Positions 28-60,669 of a stretch of DNA of 64,000 nucleotides are shown here, piece after piece (the first letter of the stretch is position 1; each line of letters starts with the position of its first letter). Both the position numbers and the translations under genes were made by a program. Origin of the DNA: Archivesica marissinica (taxonomy: Eukaryota; Mollusca; Bivalvia; Venerida; Vesicomyidae); assembly GCA_014843695.1 (NCBI GenBank), contig CM026390.1:53844121-53908120 (forward strand), written 5' to 3'. The notes beneath the pieces were generated by a model. It searched no databases, was not told the DNA's origin, and was given only the letters and a program-made list of their open reading frames with translations.

Positions 28-143
28 CAAAGAGTGCCCAGTCACTATGTGACTCCATGTGTCGTGTTAATGTGTGGATTGTTTCTGGAGGAAGGTCTGG
101 ACTGCATACAATACTGTGAGTAACAGGAACCTCTATCTCATAT
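28..143 (-). CDS. ATPAF2: ATPAF2 exon 6 (partial gene; last exon in window)
   Basis: Minus-strand exon of the mitochondrial F1-ATPase assembly factor. The acceptor ATTACAG precedes it and the donor GTAAGG follows it (plus positions 27 down). It is 116 nt, entering in phase 2 and leaving with one base. Translated residues 168-206 begin R-YEIEVPVTHSI and end HSDWALF, lining up with the human stretch RYGVEI...NTWAL. The remaining ~80 C-terminal residues, mostly helical in this family, lie beyond the left edge. The first 27 bases of the window are intron. Confidence 0.9.
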
Positions 144-224: not shown

Positions 225-960
225 GTTCGATTGTTTCCCTTACATCAGAGTGACATGGATTGTTTCCCTTACATCATAGAGTGACATGGATTGTTTCCCT
301 TACATCATATAGTGACATGGATTGTTTCCCGTACATCATATTGTGACATAGGTTGTTTCCCTTACATCATATACTGACATGGGGTGTTTCCCTTACATCA
401 TAGTGACATGGGTTGTTTCCTTTGCATTATAAAAAAATAGTATAGTGGCATAGATTATTTCCCTTGCATCATATAGTGGCATGGATTGTTTCCCTTATAT
501 CATATAGTGACATGGATTGTTTCCCTTACATCAAAGAGTGACATGGATTGTTTCTCTTACATCATGTAGTGATATGGGTTGTTTCCCTTACATAATATAG
601 TGACATGGGTTGTTTCCCTTACGTCATAAAAATATAGTGGTATGGATTGTTTCCCTTACATTATACGGTGACATGACTTGTTTCCCTAACATCATATAGT
701 GGCATGGATTGTTTCCCTTACATCATATAGTGCCATGGATTGTTTCCCTTACATCATATAGTGGCATGGATTGTTTCCCTTACATCATATAGTGACATGG
801 ATTGTTTCCCTTACATCATATAGGGACATGGATTATTTCCCTTACATCATATAGGGACATGGATTATTTCAATTACATCATATAGTGGCATGTATTATTC
901 CCCTCACATCTTACAGTATGGATTGTTTCCCTTACATCATATAGTGGCATGGGTTGTCTC
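225..960. repeat. 31-bp minisatellite in ATPAF2 intron 5
   Basis: About 23 head-to-tail copies of a 31-bp unit with core ATGGATTGTTTCCCTTACAT. Copies differ by point changes and short insertions, for example AAAAATA runs near 430 and 626. It has no coding sense in any frame. It lies between exon 6 and the exon-derived array of the same intron. Confidence 0.9.
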
Positions 961-1043
961 CCTGTCAACATATACCGACATGTATATCATCAGATTTCAA
1001 TATCAGATCACATTCACAAGTCAACTTGACTTCATATTGATAA

Positions 1044-2917
1044 TTTCTATACACTGTATAATGTGGTCACACTCCCCATGGAGAGAGAGAGATGGAGTGA
1101 GAGAGGGATAGATACACATCGTTTCTATCCACTGTACAATGGGGTCCCACTCCCCAGGGGGAGGAAGCCAGAGAGGGGGTACATACCTTGCTTCTATCCA
1201 CTGTACAATGAGGTCCCACTCCCCAGGGAGATATAGAGGGGGAGGGAGCCAGAGAGGGGGGCACATACCTTGCTTCTATCCACTGTACAATGGGGTCCCA
1301 CTCCCCAGGAAGATATAGAGGGGGAGGGAGCCAGAGAGGGGGGCACATACCTTGCTTCTATCCACTCTACAATGGGGTCCCACTCCCCAGGGAGAGATAG
1401 AAGGGGGAAGCTAGAGAGGAAGGCACATACCTTGCTTCTATCCACTGTACAATGGGGTCCCACTCCCCAGGGAGACATAGAGGGGGGAGCCAGAGAGGGA
1501 GGTACATACCTAGCTTCAATCCACTGTACAATGTGGTCCCACTCCCCAGGGAGACATAGAGGGGGGAGCCAGAGAGGGAGGTACATACCTAGCTTCAATC
1601 CACTGTACAATGGGGTCCCACTCCCCAGGGAGAGATAGGGGGAGGGAGCCAGAGAGGGAGGCACATACCTTGCTTCTATCCACTGTACAATGGGGTCCCA
1701 CTCCCCAGGGAGACATAGAAGGGGAGAGCTAGAGAGGGAGGTACATACCTAGCTTCTATCCACTGTACAATGGGGTCCCACTCCCCAGGGAGACATAGAG
1801 GGGGAGGGAGGCACATACCTTGCTTCTATCCACTGTACAATGGGGTCCCACTCCCCAGGGAGACATAGAGGGGGAGGGAGGCACATACCTTGCTTCTATC
1901 CACTGTACAATGGGGTCACACTCCCCAGGGAGAGATAGAGGGGAGGGAGGCACATACCTTGCTTCTATCCACTGTACAATGGGGTCCCACTCCCAGGGAA
2001 CATAGAGGGGAGGGAGGCACATACCTGCTTCTATCCACTGACAATGGGTCCCACTCCCCAGGGAGACATAGAGGGGGAGCTAAACACAACCCCCACACAA
2101 CCCACCCCCAAAAAAACCAAAAACAACCCCCCACACAACCCACCCCCAAAAAAAAAAGAGGGAGGCACATACCTTGCTTCTATCCACTGTACAATGGGGT
2201 CCCACTCCCCAGGGAGACATAGAGGGGGAGCTAGAGAGGGAGGCACATACCTTGCTTCTATCCACTGTACAATGGGGTCCCACTCCCCAGGGAGACATAG
2301 AAGGGGGGAGCTAGAGAGGGAGGCACATACCTTGCTTCTATCCACTGTACAATGGGGTCCCACTCCCCAGGGAGAGATAGGGGGGGAGCCAGAGAGGGAG
2401 GCACATACCTTGCTTCTTTCCACTGTACAATGGGGTCCCACTCCCCAGGGAGAGATAAGGGGGAGGGAGCCAGAGAGGGAGGCACATACCTTGCTTCTAT
2501 CCACTGTACAATGGGGTCCCACTCCCCAGGGAGAGATAGAAGGGGGAGCCAGAGAGGGAGGTACATACCTAGCTTCTACCCACTGTACAATGGGGTCCCA
2601 CTCCCCAGGGAGACATATAGGGGGGAGCTAGAGAGGAGGCACATACCTTGCTTCTACCCACTGTACAATGGGGGAGGAGGCACATACCTTGCTTCTACCA
2701 CTGTACAATGGGTCCCACTCCCCAGGGAGACATAGAGGGGGAGGGAGGCACATACCTTGCTTCTATCCACTGTACAATGGGGTCCCACTCCCCAGGGAGA
2801 CATAGAAGGGGGAAGCTAGAGAGAGAGGCACATACCTTGCTTCTATCCACTGTACAATGGGGTCCCACTTCCCAGGGAGAGATAGAGGGGGAGGGAGCAA
2901 GAGAGGAAGGCACATAC
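1044..2917 (-). repeat. Exon-derived minisatellite carrying ATPAF2 5' splice sites
   Basis: About 24 imperfect tandem copies of a ~70-82 bp unit, directly abutting ATPAF2 exon 5. Read on the minus strand each unit holds the last ~40 nt of exon 5 (encoding GEWDPIVQWIEAR), then its donor AAG|GTATGTGCC, then a pyrimidine-rich intron piece rich in CTCCCT. Copy starts were counted by eye at about 1046, 1122, 1190, 1271, 1354, 1434, 1514, 1591, 1672, 1752, 1822, 1892, 1961, 2029, 2178, 2254, 2335, 2412, 2494, 2572, 2651, 2690, 2760 and 2842; the true exon copy is at 2921. A short interruption rich in CCCCCAAAAA lies at 2085-2157. Several frames stay open for 80-160 codons, but this follows from the pyrimidine-rich unit and does not indicate separate genes. 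Confidence 0.93.
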
Positions 2918-2998
2918 CTTGCTTCTATCCACTGTACAATGGGGTCCCACTCCCCCTGTTGTAGAGTGAGTAAATCCTCAGGCTCATCAAGTCTGTAA
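2918..2998 (-). CDS. ATPAF2: ATPAF2 exon 5
   Basis: 81-nt exon. The acceptor is GCTGTGTTACAG. A second ACAG six bases further in would drop two residues, and the first is preferred because it keeps S-Y-R, matching human C-Y-R. The donor is AAG|GTATGT. Residues 141-167 read SYRLDEPEDLL...GEWDPIVQWIEA, matching the human segment CYRVEEPETL...NEWDPIIEWAEKR. The 3' half of this exon and its donor are the source of the adjacent minisatellite. Confidence 0.95.
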
Positions 2999-4067: not shown

Positions 4068-4165
4068 CTGACAGTGTCTGTTTCCATGAAGTGTATGATG
4101 CCCCGTATCAAATCAGACCGAGACTTATGCATAGGGTTGTCCAGTGCTGTATTACACAGAGCTGT
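4068..4165 (-). CDS. ATPAF2: ATPAF2 exon 4
   Basis: 98-nt exon with acceptor ATTTCAG and donor CAG|GTACAAG. Residues 109-140 read TALCNTALDNPMHKSRSDLI and then RGIIHFMETDTV, matching human TTLCNTSLDNP...DQLIRAAVKFLDTDT. It enters at phase 0 and leaves with two bases (AG) that join exon 5 to give serine 141. Confidence 0.96.
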
Positions 4166-6342: not shown

Positions 6343-6457
6343 CAGTATTATGCTTCAGTGTTTAACTTTTGTTTATTATACATGTATGTACCGTAACAAA
6401 AATCACTAGTAGCGTAACTGCATTTCTATTTTAATCATGTATATCATGTATAGTTAC

Positions 6458-6603
6458 CAAATGCATGCTGTGTCTCTGTACATTTGTCTTTTGTCCATTC
6501 CATTCTGTGGCCACGGCTAAAGCGAGTTCTTCATTTGGTACACGAAACAGGTTTCCACCTGGTGTTCGCAGCTTCTTCTGGTCCAGGTTGATTTCAAACC
6601 ATC
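6458..6603 (-). CDS. ATPAF2: ATPAF2 exon 3
   Basis: 146-nt exon with acceptor TTATCTCAG and donor TTG|GTAACT. Residues 60-108 begin G-WFEINLDQKKLRTP and include VPNEELALAVATEWNGQ, ending RHSMHL. This is the most conserved part of the Atp12 family (human GFEINLDHRKLKTP...ALAIAVATEWDSQ...MHL). Two bases complete the glycine begun in exon 2. Confidence 0.97.
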
Positions 6604-6690
6604 CTGAGATAAATGACCAATCAATAACAAAGAATTCATAGAAAACTACCATGCTGGGAGACATGATCTATTGAGATAAAAGTTTAAACT

Positions 6691-11490: not shown

Positions 11491-14400
11491 CATCACACAT
11501 GTATACTAGCATGGATCACACATGTATACTAGCATGGATCACATATGTATGCTAGCATGGACCACACATGTATACTAGCATGGATCACACATGTATACTA
11601 GCATGGATCACACATGTATACTAGCATGGATCACATATGTATGCTAGCATGGACCACACATGTATGCTTGCATGGATCACACATGTATACTAGCATGGAT
11701 CACACATGTATACTAGCATGGATCACACATGTACACTAGCATGGATCACACATGTATACTAGCATGGATCACACATGTACACTAGCATGGATCACACATG
11801 TATACTAGCATGGATCACACATGTATACTAGCATGGATCACATATGTATGCTAGCATGGACCACACATGTATGCTAGCATGGATCACACATGTATACTAG
11901 CATGGATCACATATGTATGCTAGCATGGACCACATATGTATGCTAGCATGGACCACATATGTATGCTAGCATGGACCACACATGTATACTAGCATGGGTC
12001 ACACATGTATACTAGCATGGATCACATATGTACACTAGCATGGATCACACATGTACACTAGCATGGATCACATATGTACACTAGCATGGATCACACATGT
12101 ATGCTAGCATGGATCACACACATGTATACTAGCATGGATCACACATGTATACTAGCATGGATCACATATGTATGCTAGCATGGACCACACATGTATGCTA
12201 GCATGGATCACACATGTATACTAGCATGGATCACATATGTATGCTAGCATGGACCACATATGTATGCTAGCATGGACCACATATGTATGCTAGCATGGAC
12301 CACACATGTATACTAGCATGGGTCACACATGTATACTAGCATGGATCACATATGTACACTAGCATGGATCACACATGTACACTAGCATGGATCACATATG
12401 TACACTAGCATGGATCACACATGTATGCTAGCATGGATCACACATGTATACTAGCATGGATCACATATGTATGCTAGCATGGACCACACATGTATGCTAG
12501 CATGGATCACACATGTATACTAGCATGGATCACATATGTATCTAGCATGGACCACATATGTATGCTAGCATGGACCACACATGTATACTAGCATGGATCA
12601 CACATGTATACTAGCATGGATCACACATGTATGCTAGCATGGATCACACATGTATACTAGCATGGATCACACATGTATACTAGCATGGATCACACATGTA
12701 TACTAGCATGGATCACACATGTATACTAGCATGGATCACACATGTATATAGCATGGATCACACATGTATACTAGCATGGATCACACATGTATGCTAGCAT
12801 GGATCACACATGTATACTAGCATGGATCACACATGTATGCTAGCATGGATCACACATGTATACTAGCATGGATCACACATGTATGCTAGCATGGATCACA
12901 CATGTATACTAGCATGGATCACACATGTACACTAGCATGGATCACACATGTATACTAGCATGGATCACACATGTATACTAGCATGGATCACACATGTACA
13001 CTAGCATGGATCACACATGTACACTAGCATGGATCACACATGTACACTAGCATGGATCACACATGTATGCTAGCATGGATCACACATGTATACTAGCATG
13101 GATCACACATGTATACTAGCATGGATCACACATGTACACTAGCATGGATCACACATGTATACTAGCATGGATCACACATGTATGCTAGCATGGATCACAC
13201 ATGTATGCTAGCATGGATCACACATGTATGCTAGCATGGATCACACATGTATACTAGCATGGATCACACATGTATACTAGCATGGATCACACATGTATGC
13301 TAGCATGGATCACACATGTATACTAGCATGGATCACACATGTATACTAGCATGGATCACACATGTATACTAGCATGGATCACACATGTATGCTAGCATGG
13401 ATCACACATGTATACTAGCATGGATCACACATGTATACTAGCATGGATCACACATGTATGCTAGCATGGATCACACATGTATACTAGCATGGATCACACA
13501 TGTATGCTAGCATGGATCACACATGTATACTAGCATGGATCACACATGTATGCTAGCATGGATCACACATGTATACTAGCATGGATCACACATGTACACT
13601 AGCATGGATCACACATGTACACTAGCATGGATCACACATGTATACTAGCATGGATCACACATGTACACTAGCATGGATCACACATGTATGCTAGCATGGA
13701 TCACACATGTATACTAGCATGGATCACACATGTATGCTAGCATGGATCACACATGTATACTAGCATGGATCACACATGTATGCTAGCATGGATCACACAT
13801 GTACACTAGCATGGATCACACATGTACACTAGCATGGATCACACATGTATGCTAGCATGGATCACACATGTATGCTAGCATGGATCACACATGTATGCTA
13901 GCATGGATCACACATGTATACTAGCATGGATCACACATGTATACTAGCATGGATCACACATGTATGCTAGCATGGTCCTGCATGGATCACACATGTACAC
14001 TAGCATGGATCACACATGTATGCTAGCATGGATCACACATGTATGCTAGCATGGATCACACATGTATGCTAGCATGGATCACACATGTATGCTAGCATGG
14101 ATCACACATGTATACTAGCATGGATCACACATGTATGCTAGCATGGATCACACATGTATGCTAGCATGGATCACACATGTATGCTAGCATGGTCCTGCAT
14201 GGATCACACATGTATGCTAGCATGGTCCTGCATGGATCACACATGTACACTAGCATGGATCACACATGTATGCTAGCATGGATCACACATGTATGCTAGC
14301 ATGGATCACACATGTATGCTAGCATGGATCACACATGTATACTAGCATGGATCACACATGTATACTAGCATGGATCACACATGTATGCTAGCATGGACCA

Positions 14401-17400
14401 CACATGTATACTAGCATGGATCACACATGTATACTAGCATGGATCACATATGTACACTAGCATGGATCACACATGTACACTAGCATGGATCACACATGTA
14501 TACTAGCATGGATCACACATGTATGCTAGCATGGATCACACATGTATGCTAGCATGGACCACACATGTATACTAGCATGGATCACACATATATGCTAGCA
14601 TGGATCACACATGTATGCTAGCATGGTCCTGCATGGATCACACATGTACACTAGCATGGATCACACATGTATGCTAGCATGGATCACACATGTATGCTAG
14701 CATGGATCACACATGTATACTAGCATGGATCACACATGTATGCTAGCATGGACCACACATGTATACTAGCATGGATCACACATGTATACTAGCATGGATC
14801 ACACATGTATACTAGCATGGATCACACATGTACACTAGCATGGATCACACATGTATACTAGCATGGATCACACATGTATACTAGCATGGATCACACATGT
14901 ATACTAGCATGGATCACACATGTATGCTAGCATGGATCACACATGTATGCTAGCATGGATCACACATGTATACTAGCATGGATCACACATGTATGCTAGC
15001 ATGGATCACACATGTATACTAGCATGGATCACACATGTATACTAGCATGGATCACACATGTATACTAGCATGGATCACACATGTATACTAGCATGGATCA
15101 CACATGTATACTAGCATGGATCACACATGTATGCTAGCATGGATCACACATGTATACTAGCATGGATCACACATGTATACTAGCATGGATCACACATGTA
15201 TGCTAGCATGGATCACACATGTATGCTAGCATGGATCACACATGTATGCTAGCATGGATCACACATGTATGCTAGCATGGATCACACATGTATGCTAGCA
15301 TGGATCACACATGTATACTAGCATGGATCACACATATATGCTAGCATGGATCACACATGTATGCTAGCATGGTCCTGCATGGATCACACATGTACACTAG
15401 CATGGATCACACATGTATGCTAGCATGGATCACACATGTATGCTAGCATGGATCACACATGTATGCTAGCATGGATCACACATGTATGCTAGCATGGATC
15501 ACACATGTATGCTAGCATGGATCACACATGTATACTAGCATGGATCACACATGTATGCTAGCATGGATCACACATGTATACTAGCATGGATCACACATGT
15601 ATGCTAGCATGGATCACACATGTATGCTAGCATGGATCACACATGTATGCTAGCATGGATCACACATGTATGCTAGCATGGACCACACATGTATACTAGC
15701 ATGGATCACACATATATGCTAGCATGGATCACACATGTATGCTAGCATGGTCCTGCATGGATCACACATGTATGCAGCATGGTCCTGCATGGATCACACA
15801 TGTACACTAGCATGGATCACACATGTATGCTAGCATGGATCACACATGTATGCTAGCATGGATCACACATGTATACTAGCATGGATCACACATGTATACT
15901 AGCATGGATCACACATGTATGCTAGCATGGACCACACATGTATACTAGCATGGATCACACATGTATACTAGCATGGATCACATATGTACACTAGCATGGA
16001 TCACACATGTACACTAGCATGGATCACACATGATTACTAGCATGGATCACACATGTATACTAGCATGGATCACACATGTATACTAGCATGGATCACACAT
16101 GTATGCTAGCATGGATCACACATGTATACTAGCATGGATCACACATGTATGCTAGCATGGATCACACATGTATACTAGCATGGACCACACATGTATACTA
16201 GCATGGATCACACATGTATACTAGCATGGATCACACATGTATGCTAGCATGGATCACACATGTATGCTAGCATGGATCACACATGTATACTAGCATGGAT
16301 CACATATGTACACTATCATGGATCACACATGTACACTAGCATGGATCACACATGTATGCTAGCATGGATCACACATGTATGCTAGCATGGATCACACATG
16401 TATGCTAGCATGGATCACACATGTATGCTAGCATGGATCACACATGTATACTAGCATGGATCACACATATATGCTAGCATGTATGCTAGCATGGTCCTGC
16501 ATGGATCACACATGTATGCTAGCATGGATCACACATGTATGCTAGCATGGATCACACATGTATACTAGCATGGATCACACATGTATACTAGCATGGATCA
16601 CACATGTATGCTAGCATGGATCACACATGTATGCTAGCATGGATCACACATGTATACTAGCATGGATCACACATGTATGCTAGCATGGATCACACATGTA
16701 TACTAGCATGGATCACACATGTATGCTAGCATGGATCACACATGTATACTAGCATGGATCACACATGTATACTAGCATGGATCACACATGTATACTAGCA
16801 TGGATCACACATGTACACTAGCATGGATCACACATGTATACTAGCATGGATCACACATGTATACTAGCATGGATCACATATGTACACTAGCATGGATCAC
16901 ACATGTACACTAGCATGGATCACACATGTATGCTAGCATGGATCACACATGTATGCTAGCATGGATCACACATGTATGCTAGCATGGATCACACATGTAT
17001 GCTAGCATGGACCACACATGTATACTAGCATGGCTCACACATGTATGCTAGCATGGATCACACATGTATGCTAGCATGGTCCTGCATGGATCACACATGT
17101 ACACTAGCATGGATCACACATGTATGCTAGCATGGATCACACATGTATGCTAGCATGGATCACACATGTATGCTAGCATGGATCACACATGTATGCTAGC
17201 ATGGATCACACATGTATGCTAGCATGGATCACACATGTATGCTAGCATGGATCACACATGTATGCTAGCATGGACCACACATGTATACTAGCATGGATCA
17301 CACATATATGCTAGCATGGATCACACATGTATGCTAGCATGGTCCTGCATGGATCACACATGTATGCTAGCATGGTCCTGCATGGATCACACATGTATGC

Positions 17401-20400
17401 TAGCATGGTCCTGCATGGATCACACATGTACACTAGCATGGATCACACATGTATGCTAGCATGGATCACACATGTATGCTAGCATGGATCACACATGTAT
17501 GCTAGCATGGACCACACATGTATACTAGCATGGATCACACATATATGCTAGCATGGATCACACATGTATGCTAGCATGTCCTGCATGGATCACACATGTA
17601 CACTAGCATGGATCACACATGTATGCTAGCATGGATCACACATGTATGCTAGCATGGATCACACATGTATGCTAGCATGGATCACACATGTATGCTAGCA
17701 TGGATCACACATGTATGCTAGCATGGACCACACATGTATACTAGCATGGATCACACATATATGCTAGCATGGATCACACATGTATGCTAGCATGGTCCTG
17801 CATGGATCACACATGTATGCTAGCATGGATCACACATGTATACTAGCATGGATCACATATGTACACTAGCATGGATCACACATGTATGCTAGCATGGATC
17901 ACACATGTATGCTAGCATGGATCACACATGTATGCTAGCATGGATCACACATGTATACTAGCATGGATCACACATGTACACTAGCATGGATCACACATGT
18001 ATGCTAGCATGGATCACACATGTATGCTAGCATGGATCACACATGTATGCTAGCATGGATCACACATGTATGCTAGCATGGACCACACATGTATACTAGC
18101 ATGGATCACACATATATGCTAGCATGGATCACACATGTATGCTAGCATGTCCTGCATGGATCACACATGTACACTAGCATGGATCACACATGTATGCTAG
18201 CATGGATCACACATGTATGCTAGCATGGATCACACATGTATGCTAGCATGGATCACACATGTATGCTAGCATGGATCACAGATGTATGCTAGCATGGACC
18301 ACACATATATGCTAGCATGGATCAAACATGTATGCTAGCATGGTCCTGCATGGATCACACATGTATACTAGCATGGATCACACATGTATACTAGCATGGA
18401 TCACACATGTATGCTAGCATGGATCACACATGTATGCTAGCATGGATCACACATGTATGCTAGCATGGATCACACATGTATGCTAGCATGGATCACACAT
18501 GTATACTAGCATGGATCACATATGTACACTAGCATGGATCACACATGTATGCTAGCATGGATCACACATGTATGCTAGCATGGATCACACATGTATGCTA
18601 GCATGGATCACACATGTATGCTAGCATGGATCACACATGTATGCTAGCATGGATCACACATGTATGCTAGCATGGATCACACATGTATGCTAGCATGGAT
18701 CACACATGTATGCTAGCATGGACCACACATGTATACTAGCATGGCTCACACATATATGCTAGCATGGATCACACATGTATGCTAGCATGGTCCTGCATGG
18801 ATCACACATGTACACTAGCATGGATCACACATGTATGCTAGCATGGATCACACATGTATGCTAGCATGGATCACACATGTATGCTAGCATGGATCACACA
18901 TGTATGCTAGCATGGATCACACATGTATGCTAGCATGGATCACACATGTATGCTAGCATGGACCACACATGTATACTAGCATGGATCACACATATATGCT
19001 AGCATGGATCACACATGTATGCTAGCATGGTCCTGCATGGATCACACATGTATGCTAGCATGGTCCTGCATGGATCACACATGTATGCTAGCATGGTCCT
19101 GCATGGATCACACATGTACACTAGCATGGATCACACATGTATGCTAGCATGGATCACACATGTATGCTAGCATGGATCACACATGTATGCTAGCATGGAT
19201 CACACATGTATGCTAGCATGGACCACACATGTATACTAGCATGGATCACACATGTATGCTAGCATGGATCACACATGTATGCTAGCATGGATCACATATG
19301 TACACTAGCATGGATCACACATGTATGCTAGCATGGATCACACATGTATGCTAGCATGGATCACACATGTATGCTAGCATGGATCACACATGTATGCTAG
19401 CATGGATCACACATGTATGCTAGCATGGACCACACATGTATACTAGCATGGATCACACATATATGCTAGCATGGATCACACATGTATGCTAGCATGGTCC
19501 TGCATGGATCACACATGTATGCTAGCATGGATCACACATGTATACTAGCATGGATCACATATGTACACTAGCATGGATCACACATGTATGCTAGCATGGA
19601 TCACACATGTATGCTAGCATGGATCACACATGTATGCTAGCATGGATCACACATGTATACTAGCATGGATCACATATGTACACTAGCATGGATCACACAT
19701 GTATGCTAGCATGGATCACACATGTATGCTAGCATGGATCACACATGTATGCTAGCATGGATCACACATGTATGCTAGCATGGACCACACATGTATACTA
19801 GCATGGATCACACATATATGCTAGCATGGATCACACATGTATGCTAGCATGGTCCTGCATGGATCACACATGTACACTAGCATGGATCACACATGTATGC
19901 TAGCATGGATCACACATGTATGCTAGCATGGATCACACATGTATGCTAGCATGGATCACACATGTATGCTAGCATGGATCACACATGTATGCTAGCATGG
20001 ATCACACATATATGCTAGCATGGATCACACATGTATGCTAGCATGGTCCTGCATGGATCACACATGTATGCTAGCATGGATCACACATGTATACTAGCAT
20101 GGATCACACATGTACACTAGCATGGATCACACATGTATGCTAGCATGGATCACACATGTATGCTAGCATGGATCACACATGTATGCTAGCATGGATCACA
20201 CATGTATGCTAGCATGGATCACACATGATACTAGCATGGATCACATATGTACACTAGCATGGATCACACATGTATGCTAGCATGGATCACACATGTATGC
20301 TAGCATGGATCACACATGTATGCTAGCATGGATCACACATGTATGCTAGCATGGATCACACATGTATACTAGCATGGATCACACATGTATGCTAGCATGG

Positions 20401-23400
20401 ATCACACATGTATGCTAGCATGGACCACACATGTATACTAGCATGGATCACACATGTATACTAGCATGGATCACATATGTATGCTAGCATGGATCACACA
20501 TGTATGCTAGCATGGATCACACATGTATGCTAGCATGGATCACACATGTATGCTAGCATGGACCACACATGTATACTAGCATGGATCACACATATATGCT
20601 AGCATGGATCACACATGTATGCTAGCATGGTCCTGCATGGATCACACATGTACACTAGCATGGATCACACATGTATGCTAGCATGGATCACACATGTATG
20701 CTAGCATGGATCACACATGTATGCTAGCATGGATCACACATGTATGCTAGCATGGATCACACATGTATGCTAGCATGGATCACACATGTATGCTAGCATG
20801 GATCACACATGTATGCTAGCATGGATCACACATGTATGCTAGCATGGATCACACATGGCATGGATATGCTAGCATGGATCACACATGTATGCTAGCATGG
20901 ATCACACATGTATACTAGCATGGATCACACATGTATGCTAGCATGGATCACACATGTATGCTAGCATGGTCCTGCATGGATCACACATGTATGCTAGCAT
21001 GGTCCTGCATGGATCACACATGTACACTAGCATGGATCACACATGTATGCTAGCATGGATCACACATGTATGCTAGCATGGATCACACATGTATACTAGC
21101 ATGGATCACACATGTATACTAGCATGGATCACACATGTATGCTAGCATGGACCACACATGTATACTAGCATGGATCACACATGTATACTAGCATGGATCA
21201 CATATGTACACTAGCATGGATCACACATGTACACTAGCATGGATCACACATGTATACTAGCATGGATCACACATGTATACTAGCATGGATCACACATGTA
21301 TACTAGCATGGATCACACATGTATACTAGCATGGATCACACATGTATGCTAGCATGGATCACACATGTATACTAGCATGGATCACACATGTATGCTAGCA
21401 TGGATCACACATGTATACTAGCATGGATCACACATGTATACTAGCATGGATCACACATGTATGCTAGCATGGATCACACATGTATGCTAGCATGGATCAC
21501 ACATGTATACTAGCATGGATCACACATGTATGCTAGCATGGATCACACATGTATGCTAGCATGGTCCTGCAGGATCACACATGTACTAGCATGGATCACA
21601 CATGTATACTAGCATGGATCACACATGTATGCTAGCATGGATCACACATGTATGCTAGCATGGATCACACATGTATACTAGCATGGATCACACATGTATG
21701 CTAGCATGGATCACACATGTATGCTAGTATGGATCACACATGTATGCTAGCATGGATCACACATGTATACTAGCATGGATCACACATGTATGCTAACATG
21801 GATCACACATGTATGCTAGCATGGATCACACATGTATGCTAGCATGGATCACACATGTATACTAGCATGGATCACACATGTATACTAGTATGGATCACAC
21901 ATGTATGCTAGCATGGATCACACATGTATGCTAGCATGGATCACACATGTATACTAGCATGGATCACACATGTATGCTAGCATGGATCACACATGTATAC
22001 TAGCATGGATCACACATGTATGCTAGCATGGATCACACATGTATACTAGCATCGACCACACATGTATACTAGCATGGATCACACATGTATACTAGCATGG
22101 ATCACACATGTATACTAGCATGGATCACACATGTATACTAGCATGGATCACACATGTATGCTAGCATGGATCACACATGTATGCTAGCATGGTTCACACA
22201 TGTATGCTAGCATGGATCACAGATGTATGCTAGCATGGATCACACATGTATGCTAGCATGGATCACACATGTATGCTAGCATGGACCACACATGTATACT
22301 AGCATGGCTCACACATTTATGCTAGCATGGATCACACATGTATGCTAGCATGGTCCTGCATGGATCACACATGTACACTAGCATGGATCACACATGTATG
22401 CTAGCATGGATCACACATGTATGCTAGCATGGATCACACATGTATGCTAGCATGGATCACACATGTATGCTAGCATGGATCACACATGTATGCTAGCATG
22501 GATCACACATGTATGCTAGCATGGACCACACATGTATACTAGCATGGATCACACATATATGCTAGCATGGATCACACATGTTGCTAGCATGGTCCTGCAT
22601 GGATCACACATGTATGCTAGCATGGTCCTGCATGGATCACACATGTACACTAGAATGGATCACACATGTATGCTAGCATGGATCACACATGTATGCTAGC
22701 ATGGATCACACATGTATGCTAGCATGGATCACACATGTATGCTAGCATGGATCACACATGTATGCTAGCATGGACCACACATGTATACTAGCATGGCTCA
22801 CACATATATGCTAGCATGGATCACACATGTATGCTAGCATGGTCCTGCATGGATCACACATGTACACTAGCATGGATCACAGGGATTCGGCACGTTTGGG
22901 GGTACTAGTATATATATTTAAGTACTTAAATATGTATACTAGTACCCCCAAACGTGCCGAATCCCTGTGGCATGGATCACACATGTATGCTAGCATGGAT
23001 CACACATGTATGCTAGCATGGTTCACACATGTATGCTAGCATGGATCACAGATGTATGCTAGCATGGACCACACATGTATACTAGCATGGATCACACATA
23101 TATGCTAGCATGGATCACACATGTATGCTAGCATGGTCCTGCATGGATCACACATGTATGCTAGCATGGATCACACATGTATACTAGCATGGATCACATA
23201 TGTACACTAGCATGGATCACACATGTATGTTAGCATGGATCACACATGTATGCTAGCATGGATCACACATGTATGCTAGCATGGATCACACATGTATGCT
23301 AGCATGGATCACACATGTATACTAGCATGGATCACATATGTACACTAGCATGGATCACACATGTATGCTAGCATGGATCACACATGTATGCTAGCATGGA

Positions 23401-25596
23401 TCACACATGTATGCTAGCATGGATCACACATGTATGCTAGCATGGATCACACATGTATGCTAGCATGGATCACACATGTATACTAGCATGGATCACACAT
23501 GTATACTAGCATGGATCACACATGTATGCTAGCATGGACCACACATGTATACTAGCATGGATCACACATGTATACTAGCATGGATCACATATGTACACTA
23601 GCATGGATCACACATGTACACTAGCATGGATCACACATGTATACTAGCATGGATCACACATGTATACTAGCATGGATCACACATGTATACTAGCATGGAT
23701 CACACATGTATACTAGCATGGATCACACATGTATGCTAGCATGGATCACACATGTATACTAGCATGGATCACACATGTATGCTAGCATGGATCACACATG
23801 TATACTAGCATGGACCACACATGTATACTAGCATGGATCACACACGTATACTAGCATGGATCATTCATGGATCACACATGTATGCCAGCATGGATCACAC
23901 ATGTATGCTAGCATGGATCACACATGTATACTAGCATGGATCACATATGTACACTAGCATGGATCACACATGTACACTAGCATGGATCACACATGTATGC
24001 TAGCATGGATCACACATGTATGCTAGCATGGATCACACATGTATGCTAGCATGGATCACACATATATGCTAGCATGGACCACACATGTATACTAGCATGG
24101 ATCACACATATATGCTAGCATGGATCACACATGTATGCTAGCATGGTCCTGCATGGATCACACATGTACACTAGCATGGATCACACATGTATACTAGCAT
24201 GGATCACACATGTATGCTAGCATGGATCACACATGTATGCTAGCATGGATCACACATGTACACTAGCATGGGTCACACATGTATACTAGCATGGATCACA
24301 CATGTATACTAGTATGGATCACACATGTATGCTAGCATGGATCACACATGTATGCTAGCATGGATCACACATGTATGCTAGCATGGATCACACATGTATG
24401 CTAGCATGGATCACACATGTATACTAGCATGGATCACACATGTATACTAGCATGGATCACACATGTATGCTAGCATGGATCACACATGTATGCTAGCATG
24501 GATCACACATGTATACTAGCATGGACCACACATGTACACTAGCATGGATCACACATGTATATTAGCATGGATCACACATGTATATTAGCATGGATCACAC
24601 ATGTATACTAGCATGGATCACACATGTATACTAGCATGGATCACACATGTATGCTAGCATGGATCACACATGTATGCTAGCATGGACCACACATGTATAC
24701 TAGCATGGATCACACATGTATACTAGCATGGACCACACATATATACTAGCATGGATCACACATGTATACTAGCATGGATCACACATGTATGCTAGCATGG
24801 ATCACACATGTACACTAGCATGGATCACACATGTATACTAGCATGGATCACACATGTATACTAACATGGATCACACATGTATACTAACATGGATCACACA
24901 TGTACACTAGCATGGATCACACATGTATACTAGCATGGATCACACATGTATACTAGCATGGATCACACATGTATGCTAGCATGGATCACACATGTACACT
25001 AGCATGGATCGCACATGTATACTAGCATGGACCACACATGTATGCTAGCATGGACCACACATGTATACTAGCATGGATCACACATGTATACTAGCATGGA
25101 TCACACATGTATACTAGCATGGACCACACATGTATGCTAGCATGGACCACATATGTACACTAGCATGGATCACACATGTATATTAGCATGGATCACACAT
25201 GTACATTAACATGGATCACACATGTATACTAGCATGGATCACACATGTACATTAGCATGGATCACACATGTATACTAGTATGGATCACACATGTACACTA
25301 GCATGGATCACACATATACACTAGCATGGATCACACATGTATACTAGCATGGATCACACATGTACACTAGCATGGATCACACATGTATATTAGCATGGAT
25401 CACACATGTATACTAGCATGGATCACACATGTATACTAGCATGGACCACACATGTATGCTAGCATGGATCACATATGTATGCTAGCATGGACCACACATG
25501 TATACTAGCATGGATCACATATGTATGCTAGCATGGACCACACATGTATACTAGCATGGATCACATATGTATACTAGCATGGATCACACATGTATG
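11491..25596. repeat. 14.1-kb array of a 23-bp unit in GID4 intron 1
   Basis: About 610 copies of a 23-bp unit, consensus GCATGGATCACACATGTATA plus CTA. The main variants differ at TATAC, TATGC or TACAC before TAGC, and CACATG or CATATG. Unit order is not random. A 14-unit block near 11.85-12.11 kb is repeated at 12.17-12.44 kb. From ~13,970 to ~24,150 an inserted GGTCCTGCATGG marks recurring higher-order blocks that are absent from both edges. Because 23 is not a multiple of three and the unit contains TAG, no long reading frame exists. A 92-bp palindrome interrupts it at 22.9 kb. Confidence 0.97.
22878..22969. mobile_element. 92-bp near-perfect palindrome, possibly a minimal MITE
   Basis: Begins CACAGGGATTCGGCACGTTT and ends with its exact complement. 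The arms meet at TTAAGTACTTAA, with one small mismatch region near TATATATA/TATGTATA. CAGGG ends suggest a hAT-like MITE, but no clear target duplication is visible in the repetitive background. It is the only foreign insert seen within the 23-bp array. Confidence 0.8.
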
Positions 25597-31789: not shown

Positions 31790-32890
31790 CATCCTTGATA
31801 GGGCCTCATTGTCACGAGGATGATATGTATGCATTTCCTACCATTAATGCAGAAGTAATTGAATATCCTTGATAGGGCCTCATTGTCACGAGGATGATAT
31901 GTATGCATTTCCTACCATTAATGCAGAAGTAATTGAATATCCTTGATAGGGCCTCATTGTCACGAGGATGCTATGTATGCATTTCTTACCATTAATGCAG
32001 AAGTAATTGAATATCCTTGATAGGGCCTCATTGTCACGAGGATGATATGCATTTCTTACCATTAATGCAGAAGTAATTGAATATCCTTGATAGGGCCTCA
32101 TTGTCACGAGGATGATATGCATTTCCTACCATTAATGCAGAAGTAATTGAATATCCTTGATAGGGCCTCATTGTCACGAGGATGCTATGTATGCATTTCT
32201 TACCATTAATGCAGAAGTAATTGAATATCCTTGATAGGGCCTCATTGTCACGAGGATGATCTGTATGCATTTCTTACCATTAATGCAGAAGTAATTGAAT
32301 ATCCTTGATAGGGCCTCATTGTCACGTGGATGATATGCATTTCCTACCATTAATGCAGAAGTAATTGAATATCCTTGATAGGGCCTCATTGTCACGAGGA
32401 TGCTATGTATGCATTTCTTACCATTAATGCAGAAGTAATTGAATATCCTTGATAGGGCCTCATTGTCACGAGGATGATCTGTATGCATTTCTTACCATTA
32501 ATGCAGAAGTAATTGAATATCCTTGATAGGGCCTCATTGTCACGTGGATGATATGCATTTCCTACCATTAATGCAGAAGTAATTGAATATCCTTGATAGG
32601 GCCTCATTGTCACGAGGATGCTATGTATGCATTTCTTACCATTAATGCAGAAGTAATTGAATATCCTTGATAGTGCCTCATTTTCACGAGGATGATCTGT
32701 ATGCATTTCTTACCATTAATGCAGAAGTAATTGAATATCCTTGATAGGGCCTCATTGTCACGAGGATGATCTGTATGCATTTCTTACCATTAATGCAGAA
32801 GTAATTGAATATCCTTGATAGGGCCTCATTGTCACGAGGATGCTATGTATGCATTTCTTACCATTAATGCGGAACTAATTGAATATCCTT
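31790..32890. repeat. 69-74-bp minisatellite just after the GID4 stop codon
   Basis: About 15 copies of a unit with TTGATAGGGCCTCATTGTCA, CGAGGATGATATGTATGCAT and TTACCATTAATGCAGAAG. Three-unit blocks recur with a 218-bp period (the CTATGTATGC variant at ~32184, 32402 and 32620). It may be in the GID4 3' UTR. Minus-strand frames of ~100 codons here are repeat artefacts. Confidence 0.94.
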
Positions 32891-33034
32891 GATAGGGCCT
32901 CACTCTCAATTTGATTCAAGCATGAACATGGTTTATTTATTGTAAATTCACCTATATACTGCGATCTTAGTTTTGACCCTGATATAATAGTACTATGGGA
33001 AGACAAAGACAAAAACTTGTAATCAGGGTCTGTA

Positions 33035-60201: not shown

Positions 60202-60525
60202 TATATTATGATAAAGATACCACATGAGACAACTTCAACAATTGCCAATGAACGTATACGTGCTTTTATTGCAGGTAAATCCTATATTATGATAAAGATA
60301 CCACATGAGACAACTTCAACAATTGCCAATGAACGTATACGTGCTTTTATTGCAGGTAAATCCTATATTATGATAAAGATACCACATGAGACAACTTCAA
60401 CAATTGCCAATGAACGTATACGTGCTTTTATTGCAGGTAAATCCTATATTATGATAAAGATACCACATGAGACAACTTCAACAATTGCCAATGAACGTAT
60501 ACCTGCTTTTATTGCAGGTAAATCC
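60202..60525 (+). repeat. 81-bp repeat x4 carrying the 3' splice site of PDZ-LIM exon 2
   Basis: Four adjacent 81-bp units (60202, 60283, 60364 and 60445), almost identical. Each ends TGCTTTTATTGCAG|GTAAATCC, that is, the polypyrimidine tract, AG and the first eight bases of coding exon 2. The fourth unit differs by CCTGC for CGTGC and runs into the real exon at 60518. Because 81 = 27 codons and one frame is open, a 190-codon frame appears here; it is not a gene. Confidence 0.96.
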
Positions 60526-60669
60526 AAAGAGTCTGTCCTACCGGCTCGGGTTGAGACTGGGAGATCGTCTTCTCGCTATCGGACCCGTACAAGCGCACAA
60601 TATGAGCCACGAGCAGGCCAAGATGGAAATCATCCGAGCCGGAAACGAATTAGATCTCATCGTTCAAAG
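60518..60669 (+). CDS. ZASP/Enigma-type PDZ-LIM protein, coding exon 2
   Basis: Completes the PDZ domain begun in exon 1. It reads VNPKSLSYRLGLRLGDRLLA then IGPVQAHNMSHEQAKMEIIR and AGNELDLIVQ-R. G-L-x-x-G-D and the H-x-x-A helix are standard PDZ landmarks; HEQA and the terminal VQR match ZASP proteins. The acceptor is the last of four identical TTTTATTGCAG sites. The donor is AG|GTAGTA, leaving phase 2. Later exons encoding linker and LIM domains are expected to the right of the window; none could be found before 64,000. Confidence 0.93.

What the first reader, a model, noticed from the sequence alone, without database searches (positions are those of the whole stretch)
1044..2998. ATPAF2 exon 5 end and its 5' splice site amplified ~25-fold into the intron
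The minisatellite next to exon 5 is made from the gene itself. Each unit contains the last ~40 exon bases (GEWDPIVQWIEAR), the exact donor AAG|GTATGTGCC, and a pyrimidine-rich intron piece. The spliceosome therefore faces one real donor followed by about 24 near-identical decoys, each preceded by a pyrimidine tract and AG that could also act as an acceptor for a ~32-nt pseudo-exon. Pseudo-exon inclusion would give a stop (frame AGT GGG ... GGA TAG). This would be an unusual source of splicing noise or regulation in a mitochondrial assembly gene.
Basis: partly seen in the sequence, partly recalled or inferred. Interest (0 to 1): 0.88.

Follow-up and report, generated by a model that had tools for sequence, protein, structure and literature searches.

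The report
Splice junction swallowed by a minisatellite
A tandem repeat in a mitochondrial-assembly gene has copied the end of an exon and its splice signal over twenty times into the neighbouring intron, a striking but not unprecedented arrangement that most likely reflects repeat growth in a repeat-rich genome and whose effect on the gene's RNA is untested.

Summary
The window holds ATPAF2 (ATP12 family) on the minus strand. Exon 5 (2998-2918, 81 nt) runs into an array (2917-1044) filling 68% of the 2774-nt intron 5. There are 25 copies of the exon end, the real one included; 23 carry AG|GTATGT, so the real donor faces 22 intact decoys. The two farthest copies have lost the donor. The array was found once in the 1.54-Gb assembly.

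By a recalled consensus matrix, 18 of 22 decoys score at least as high as the real donor. But the proposed 32-nt pseudo-exon acceptor is poor. A better one (CTCTCTAG, six sites) gives 58-60-nt pseudo-exons, four in frame without a stop. Using a decoy as donor gives a premature stop for 21 of 22.

Best explanation: ordinary minisatellite growth over a splice junction, the real donor favoured by position and exon definition. Minisatellites supplying multiple donors are known (human IFI6). The same window also holds a mirror case: a PDZ exon's acceptor plus 8 exon bases repeated four times. About a third of sampled chromosome bases lie in arrays. No RNA data were available.

The parts
2918..2998 (-). 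ATPAF2 exon 5 (81 nt, phase 2 to 2), YRLDEPEDLLTLQQGEWDPIVQWIEAR
   Evidence: reading frame across exons 4-8; Pfam ATP12
2912..2920 (-). real donor AAG|GTATGT (cut between 2918 and 2917)
   Evidence: consensus score 5.90, highest of the four donors scored in the gene
1044..2955 (-). minisatellite: 25 copies of the exon-5 end (the real one included), 23 with AG|GTATGT, each followed by a pyrimidine-rich intron piece
1044..1165 (-). two diverged distal exon-like copies without the donor 8-mer (anchors 1144 and 1064)
2082..2154 (-). G/T-rich insert (about two copies of 38 nt) inside one unit, next to single-base deletions; possible assembly error
2756..2815 (-). example of the better pseudo-exon: acceptor CTCTCTAG|C with first exonic base 2815, donor 2756|2755, 60 nt, in frame, no stop
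229..982 (.). second, unrelated minisatellite (31-bp unit, 24 copies) filling most of the rest of intron 5
28..143 (-). ATPAF2 exon 6, 116 nt; its acceptor is the real partner of the exon 5 donor
4068..4165 (-). ATPAF2 exon 4, 98 nt
6449..6604 (-). ATPAF2 upstream exon (ends approximate, from tblastn)
   Evidence: also the match
60202..60525 (+). mirror case: four 81-bp copies, each with TTTTATTGCAG|GTAAATCC, i.e. the acceptor plus first 8 bases of a PDZ exon
60518..60669 (+). PDZ-domain exon behind the fourth copy, donor CAAAG|GTAGTA
   Evidence: Pfam PF00595, 25.6 bits against cut-off 23.2; sequence

Best explanation
An intronic minisatellite that grew out of the exon 5/intron 5 junction of ATPAF2. 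A first tandem duplication took the last ~38 exon bases, the donor and ~40 pyrimidine-rich intron bases; unequal exchange or conversion then enlarged and homogenised the array, leaving the distal edge diverged (shown: unit content, homogeneity, decayed edge, single locus found; inferred: the recombination steps). In the transcript the spliceosome meets one authentic donor followed by 22 donors of much the same consensus strength (shown, with a recalled matrix). The authentic one probably wins because it is made first and closes the shortest exon from the upstream acceptor: decoys 1-3 would make exons of 163, 243 and 311 nt, later ones 352-1812 nt (lengths shown, preference inferred). The pseudo-exons also lie between pyrimidine runs of the kind that PTB-like repressors bind (runs shown, binding inferred from recalled knowledge). 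Leakage to the nearest decoys is likely low, and most such RNA would carry a premature stop and be degraded (stops shown, decay inferred). I see no need for a selected function.
For: 25 copies, 23 with the donor; 18 of 22 decoys score at or above the real donor. Decoy use breaks the frame for 21 of 22; only decoy 2 (+162 nt, 54 aa) stays open, judged on exons 4-8. 12 matches of a 239-base query in a 1.54-Gb assembly, all inside window 1102-2955. Setting: 68,549 of 200,000 bases of 20 random loci of the same chromosome lie in arrays of at least 5 copies, 17 of 20 loci affected, and about 34,280 of 64,000 bases of the window by a hand-merged list of the rows, so arrays touching exons are expected. 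41 pyrimidine runs of 10 or more in the array, 0 in the rest of intron 5 and 0 in intron 4. A second splice junction in the same window is repeated too.
Against: No RNA evidence, so the real donor's dominance is inferred. In the 22 inner decoys the donor 8-mer has 0 changes in 176 cells and is more often invariant than the exon-like columns (8/8 against 18/33, Fisher P 0.016), which could hint at retention; it vanishes with all 24 decoy copies (3/8 against 14/33, P 0.74) or without two odd units (8/8 against 24/33, P 0.11). Experiments with tandem identical donors that favour the downstream one (recalled, no call) would predict more decoy use than I assume. Some products would stay in frame: decoy 2 and four 60-nt pseudo-exons, and one 30-nt pseudo-exon of a unit with deletions.
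Confidence: 0.72

Rival explanations
1. Regulated or copy-number-dependent unproductive splicing: decoy donors and pseudo-exons draw a share of transcripts into nonsense-mediated decay, so array length sets ATPAF2 dose.
For: 22 decoys, 21 of 22 leading to a premature stop; IFI6 precedent in which downstream repeat units are used as donors (passage in PMC4526556); no sign that decoy donors have been purged in 22 inner units.
Confidence: 0.12
2. The decoys help the real donor: repeated U1 sites and G-runs downstream of exon 5 recruit U1 and strengthen definition of exon 5 or suppress premature polyadenylation.
For: 22 donor-like decoys and 25 GGGG runs in the array; the effect of such elements is recalled knowledge, not tested here.
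Against: The real donor is already the strongest of the four scored in the gene, so little help is needed.
Confidence: 0.06
3. The array is real, but its copy number or some units are assembly errors.
For: Single-base deletions cluster beside a low-complexity insert at 2082-2154 and at 2670-2715.
Against: Units differ by distinct substitutions and spacings and the distal edge is diverged, unlike a mis-joined copy; no duplicate contig of the array was found.
Confidence: 0.08
4. The units act as dual-specific or recursive AG|GT sites, so that the intron is removed unit by unit.
For: Every intact unit has AG|GT; tandem AGGT repeats are spliced this way in human UBC (PMC10809524).
Against: As acceptors these 22 sites score -5.9 to -16.3, the bases before AG being purine-rich exon sequence.
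Confidence: 0.02

Closest known systems
Human IFI6 (6-16, G1P3) minisatellite supplying multiple splice donors (Turri et al. 1995; title seen in reference lists; use of two downstream repeat units as donors stated in PMC4526556, passage; the original is not held)
   Same: a tandem repeat at the exon end carries the donor in its units, so one true donor is followed by decoys
Tandem repeats at exon-intron boundaries of human genes in segmental duplications (PMC2812944, passages)
   Same: minisatellites over exon-intron boundaries, 27 intron modifications, alternative splicing and new introns
   Different: the variable repeats there average 30-bp units repeated 4 times in recent paralogs; here about 25 copies in a gene whose ATP12 profile matched one place in the assembly
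UBC polyubiquitin dual-specific splice sites (PMC10809524, abstract and passages)
   Same: tandem array of AGGT sites; that paper counts 792 human introns in tandem repeats, 77 with a length that is a multiple of the unit
   Different: here the AGGT sites look like donors only, and intron 5 ends at an unrelated acceptor; the PDZ array in this window fits better

Membership tests
Minisatellite providing multiple splice donors (IFI6 type) | array begins in the exon and spans the true 5' splice site | tested here: met
   last ~38 exon bases and donor are the first copy of the array
Minisatellite providing multiple splice donors (IFI6 type) | units carry donor sequences of comparable strength | tested here: met
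   22 of 24 decoy copies with AG|GTATGT, 18 of those 22 scoring at or above the real one
Minisatellite providing multiple splice donors (IFI6 type) | decoy donors are used in mRNA | not testable with these tools
   no RNA reads for this genome
Dual-specific splice site array (UBC type) | AGGT repeated at unit spacing | tested here: met
Dual-specific splice site array (UBC type) | the same site plausible as acceptor | tested here: not met
   acceptor scores -5.9 to -16.3 for 22 sites, recalled matrix
Dual-specific splice site array (UBC type) | intron runs from unit to unit | tested here: not met
   intron 5 ends at 144, outside the array
Dispersed satellite or mobile element | copies elsewhere in the genome | tested here: not met
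   12 matches, all inside window 1102-2955; that search skips very common words
ATP12 / ATPAF2 | ATP12 Pfam profile over cut-off and an open frame to a stop | tested here: met
   48 and 44.5 bits against 27

The most novel reading that the evidence does not exclude
In this minisatellite-rich genome, array growth recurrently swallows splice junctions, making natural tandem series of identical donors (23 at ATPAF2 exon 5) or of acceptor/donor dual sites (4 at the PDZ exon), and the resulting unproductive splicing makes gene output depend on array length.
Probability: 0.15. Interest if true: 0.7.

Novelty: new member of a known kind. Interest (0 to 1): 0.45.

Why it matters
It is a natural competition experiment: one authentic 5' splice site against 22 copies with much the same exon end, donor and intron start, differing mainly in distance from the upstream acceptor. 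It can show how exon definition picks the right donor. With the PDZ case it suggests that in genomes rich in minisatellites splice junctions may often be drawn into arrays, a route to splice noise, new isoforms and new introns.

Tried and rejected
Rejected: the 32-nt pseudo-exon as the main alternative (weak GAG|T acceptor); unit-to-unit AG|GT splicing in ATPAF2; a mobile or dispersed repeat; selection keeping or purging decoy donors (no robust signal: P 0.016, 0.11 or 0.74 by choice of copies). The column statistics and the GT/noGT mark failed in the script and are not used; the alignment picked its units by the donor itself and left out unit 11, so it is not used for that test. A donor-rich array in random locus L020 (261-2978, 26 strong sites) comes from GTAGGTAGG runs, with no exon recognised by eye; it was the only one of 55 arrays in the sample with strong sites, so donor-like motifs in arrays are not in themselves special; only the exon origin is. 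The array at 31791-32902 (10 weaker donor-like sites) showed no exon by eye.

Led nowhere: a survey of exon borders genome-wide was not possible, since the PDZ family search did not complete. ORFs of the window and the random loci were counted but not scanned for domains. Two paper searches returned nothing (whose phrases lacked the prime sign and may not have matched); (ATPAF2 with minisatellite) returned 0 papers; one search listed 2 papers that mention ATPAF2 once each, not opened; one search listed nothing on the subject by title. The PDZ case was found because I looked at arrays, so 2 repeated junctions in this window is not an unbiased rate; among 11 ATPAF2 borders checked, 1 is overlapped by an array (exon 3 borders approximate, and this array was added to the list by hand).

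Full report
Setting. The window is C5:53844121-53908120 of a 1.54-Gb, 2808-contig assembly without a name. From memory of its repeats I take it for a bivalve; no call tests this. The array lies in ATPAF2 on the minus strand. Exons were located by tblastn with the recalled human protein and read by hand. Exons 4 to 8 (98, 81, 116 and 116 nt and the last exon to its stop) join to one open frame of 182 aa. Pfam names it ATP12, and solved ATP12 chains match it. The ATP12 profile matched one place in the assembly.

The array. Exon 5 ends ...GGGGAGTGGGACCCCATTGTACAGTGGATAGAAGCAAG|GTATGTGCC. An anchor inside this stretch finds 25 copies including the exon itself. 23 have the exact AG|GTATGT; the two farthest from the exon have lost it. 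Donors are 67-82 nt apart but for one step of 41 and one of 148 with a G/T-rich insert. In 20 inner copies (the truncated unit and the unit with several deletions left out) the exon-like part differs from consensus by 13 substitutions and 2 gaps in 660 cells, about 2%; the real exon matches the consensus across this part and the donor. The array together with a second, unrelated one (229-982) makes up nearly all of intron 5 (2917-144). Searching the assembly with about three units gave 12 matches, all within this array, so it is no dispersed repeat and no duplicate contig of it was seen, with the stated limits of that search.

Splice potential. With a recalled human-like donor matrix the real donor scores 5.90, above the three other donors of the gene scored (0.76, 3.75, 2.87); decoys score 5.90 (17), 6.02 (1) and 4.44 (4). 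27 of 9083 GT sites on both strands of the window reach 5.90. The better acceptor in the array is CTCTCTAG|C, at six sites scoring 0.26-2.49, comparable with the real exon 5, 6 and 7 acceptors (2.20, 1.02, -1.45) but below those of exons 4 and 8 (4.28, 6.00). One truncated unit has a CAG|T scoring 5.83 that would make a 14-nt exon. These are rough consensus scores, not predictions of use.

Consequences. Decoy donors 1 to 22 would make exon 5 163 to 1812 nt long. 21 of 22 lead to a premature stop; decoy 2 keeps the frame and adds 54 aa. Four of the six CTCTCTAG pseudo-exons are 60 nt and in frame; the other two (58 and 59 nt) give stops. Retaining the intron gives a stop; skipping exon 5 keeps the frame but loses 27 aa. 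Exons upstream of exon 4 were not included.

Selection. If decoys did harm, their donors should decay faster than the rest of the unit. In the 22 inner copies there is no change in 176 donor cells, against 18 substitutions in 726 exon-like cells; the comparison of invariant columns gives P 0.016, 0.11 or 0.74 depending on which copies are counted. So there is no sign of purging and no robust sign of retention.

How common. In 20 random 10-kb loci of the same chromosome (200,000 bases, 4,518 of them N), 55 arrays of at least 5 copies hold 68,549 bases, in 17 of 20 loci. About 34,280 of the window's 64,000 bases are repeat by a hand-merged list, which also admits arrays of fewer copies. One of the 55 arrays also has many donor-like sites (26), without an exon in view. 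Of 11 ATPAF2 exon borders, one is overlapped by an array.

A mirror case. At 60202-60525 on the plus strand four 81-bp copies (TRF 99% matches) each end in TTTTATTGCAG|GTAAATCC, and the fourth runs on into an exon coding part of a PDZ domain (PF00595, 25.6 bits, cut-off 23.2). So the acceptor and the first 8 exon bases are repeated. The three decoy acceptors score 4.74, the real one 6.46, and the same site scores 5.37 as a donor. Here the dual-specific or recursive reading fits the motif. Use of a decoy acceptor would read VNPIL and two stops. The rest of that gene was not traced.

Precedents. A paper on IFI6 states that downstream repeat units serve as splice donors to give three mRNAs (PMC4526556, passage), citing the 1995 report of a minisatellite providing multiple splice donors (title only; not held). 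Human repeats at exon-intron borders produced 27 intron modifications (PMC2812944, passages). Human introns in tandem repeats and the UBC array are described in PMC10809524 (abstract and passages). Earthworm metallothionein genes hold intronic minisatellites, with no splice-site copies mentioned in the passages seen (PMC12783039). No paper of the library holds ATPAF2 together with minisatellite, and the searches naming bivalve or mollusc listed none on this subject by title; the library covers open-licence papers only.

Verdict. Real, striking, and an instance of a known kind. The effect on splicing is open, and is a good test of donor choice.

Noticed in passing
60202-60669 (+): Acceptor plus first 8 bases of a PDZ exon repeated four times in 81-bp units; the AG|GTAAAT site is donor-like as well, so it resembles a dual-specific or recursive splice site.
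   Followed up: partly
2082-2154 and flanks 1985-2160, 2670-2715: Low-complexity G/T insert and clustered single-base deletions in otherwise regular units, suggesting local consensus errors.
   Followed up: partly
L020 261-2978: Another array with 26 strong donor-like sites, from GTAGGTAGG runs in a 65-bp unit; no exon seen.
   Followed up: partly
31791-32902 (-): 74-bp unit array whose units hold ATTAATG|GTAAGA, a weaker donor-like site; no coding frame recognised.
   Followed up: partly
11492-25596: A 14-kb array of a 23-bp unit, the largest in the window.
   Followed up: no
L004-L023: About a third of 200 kb of random sequence lies in minisatellite arrays.
   Followed up: partly
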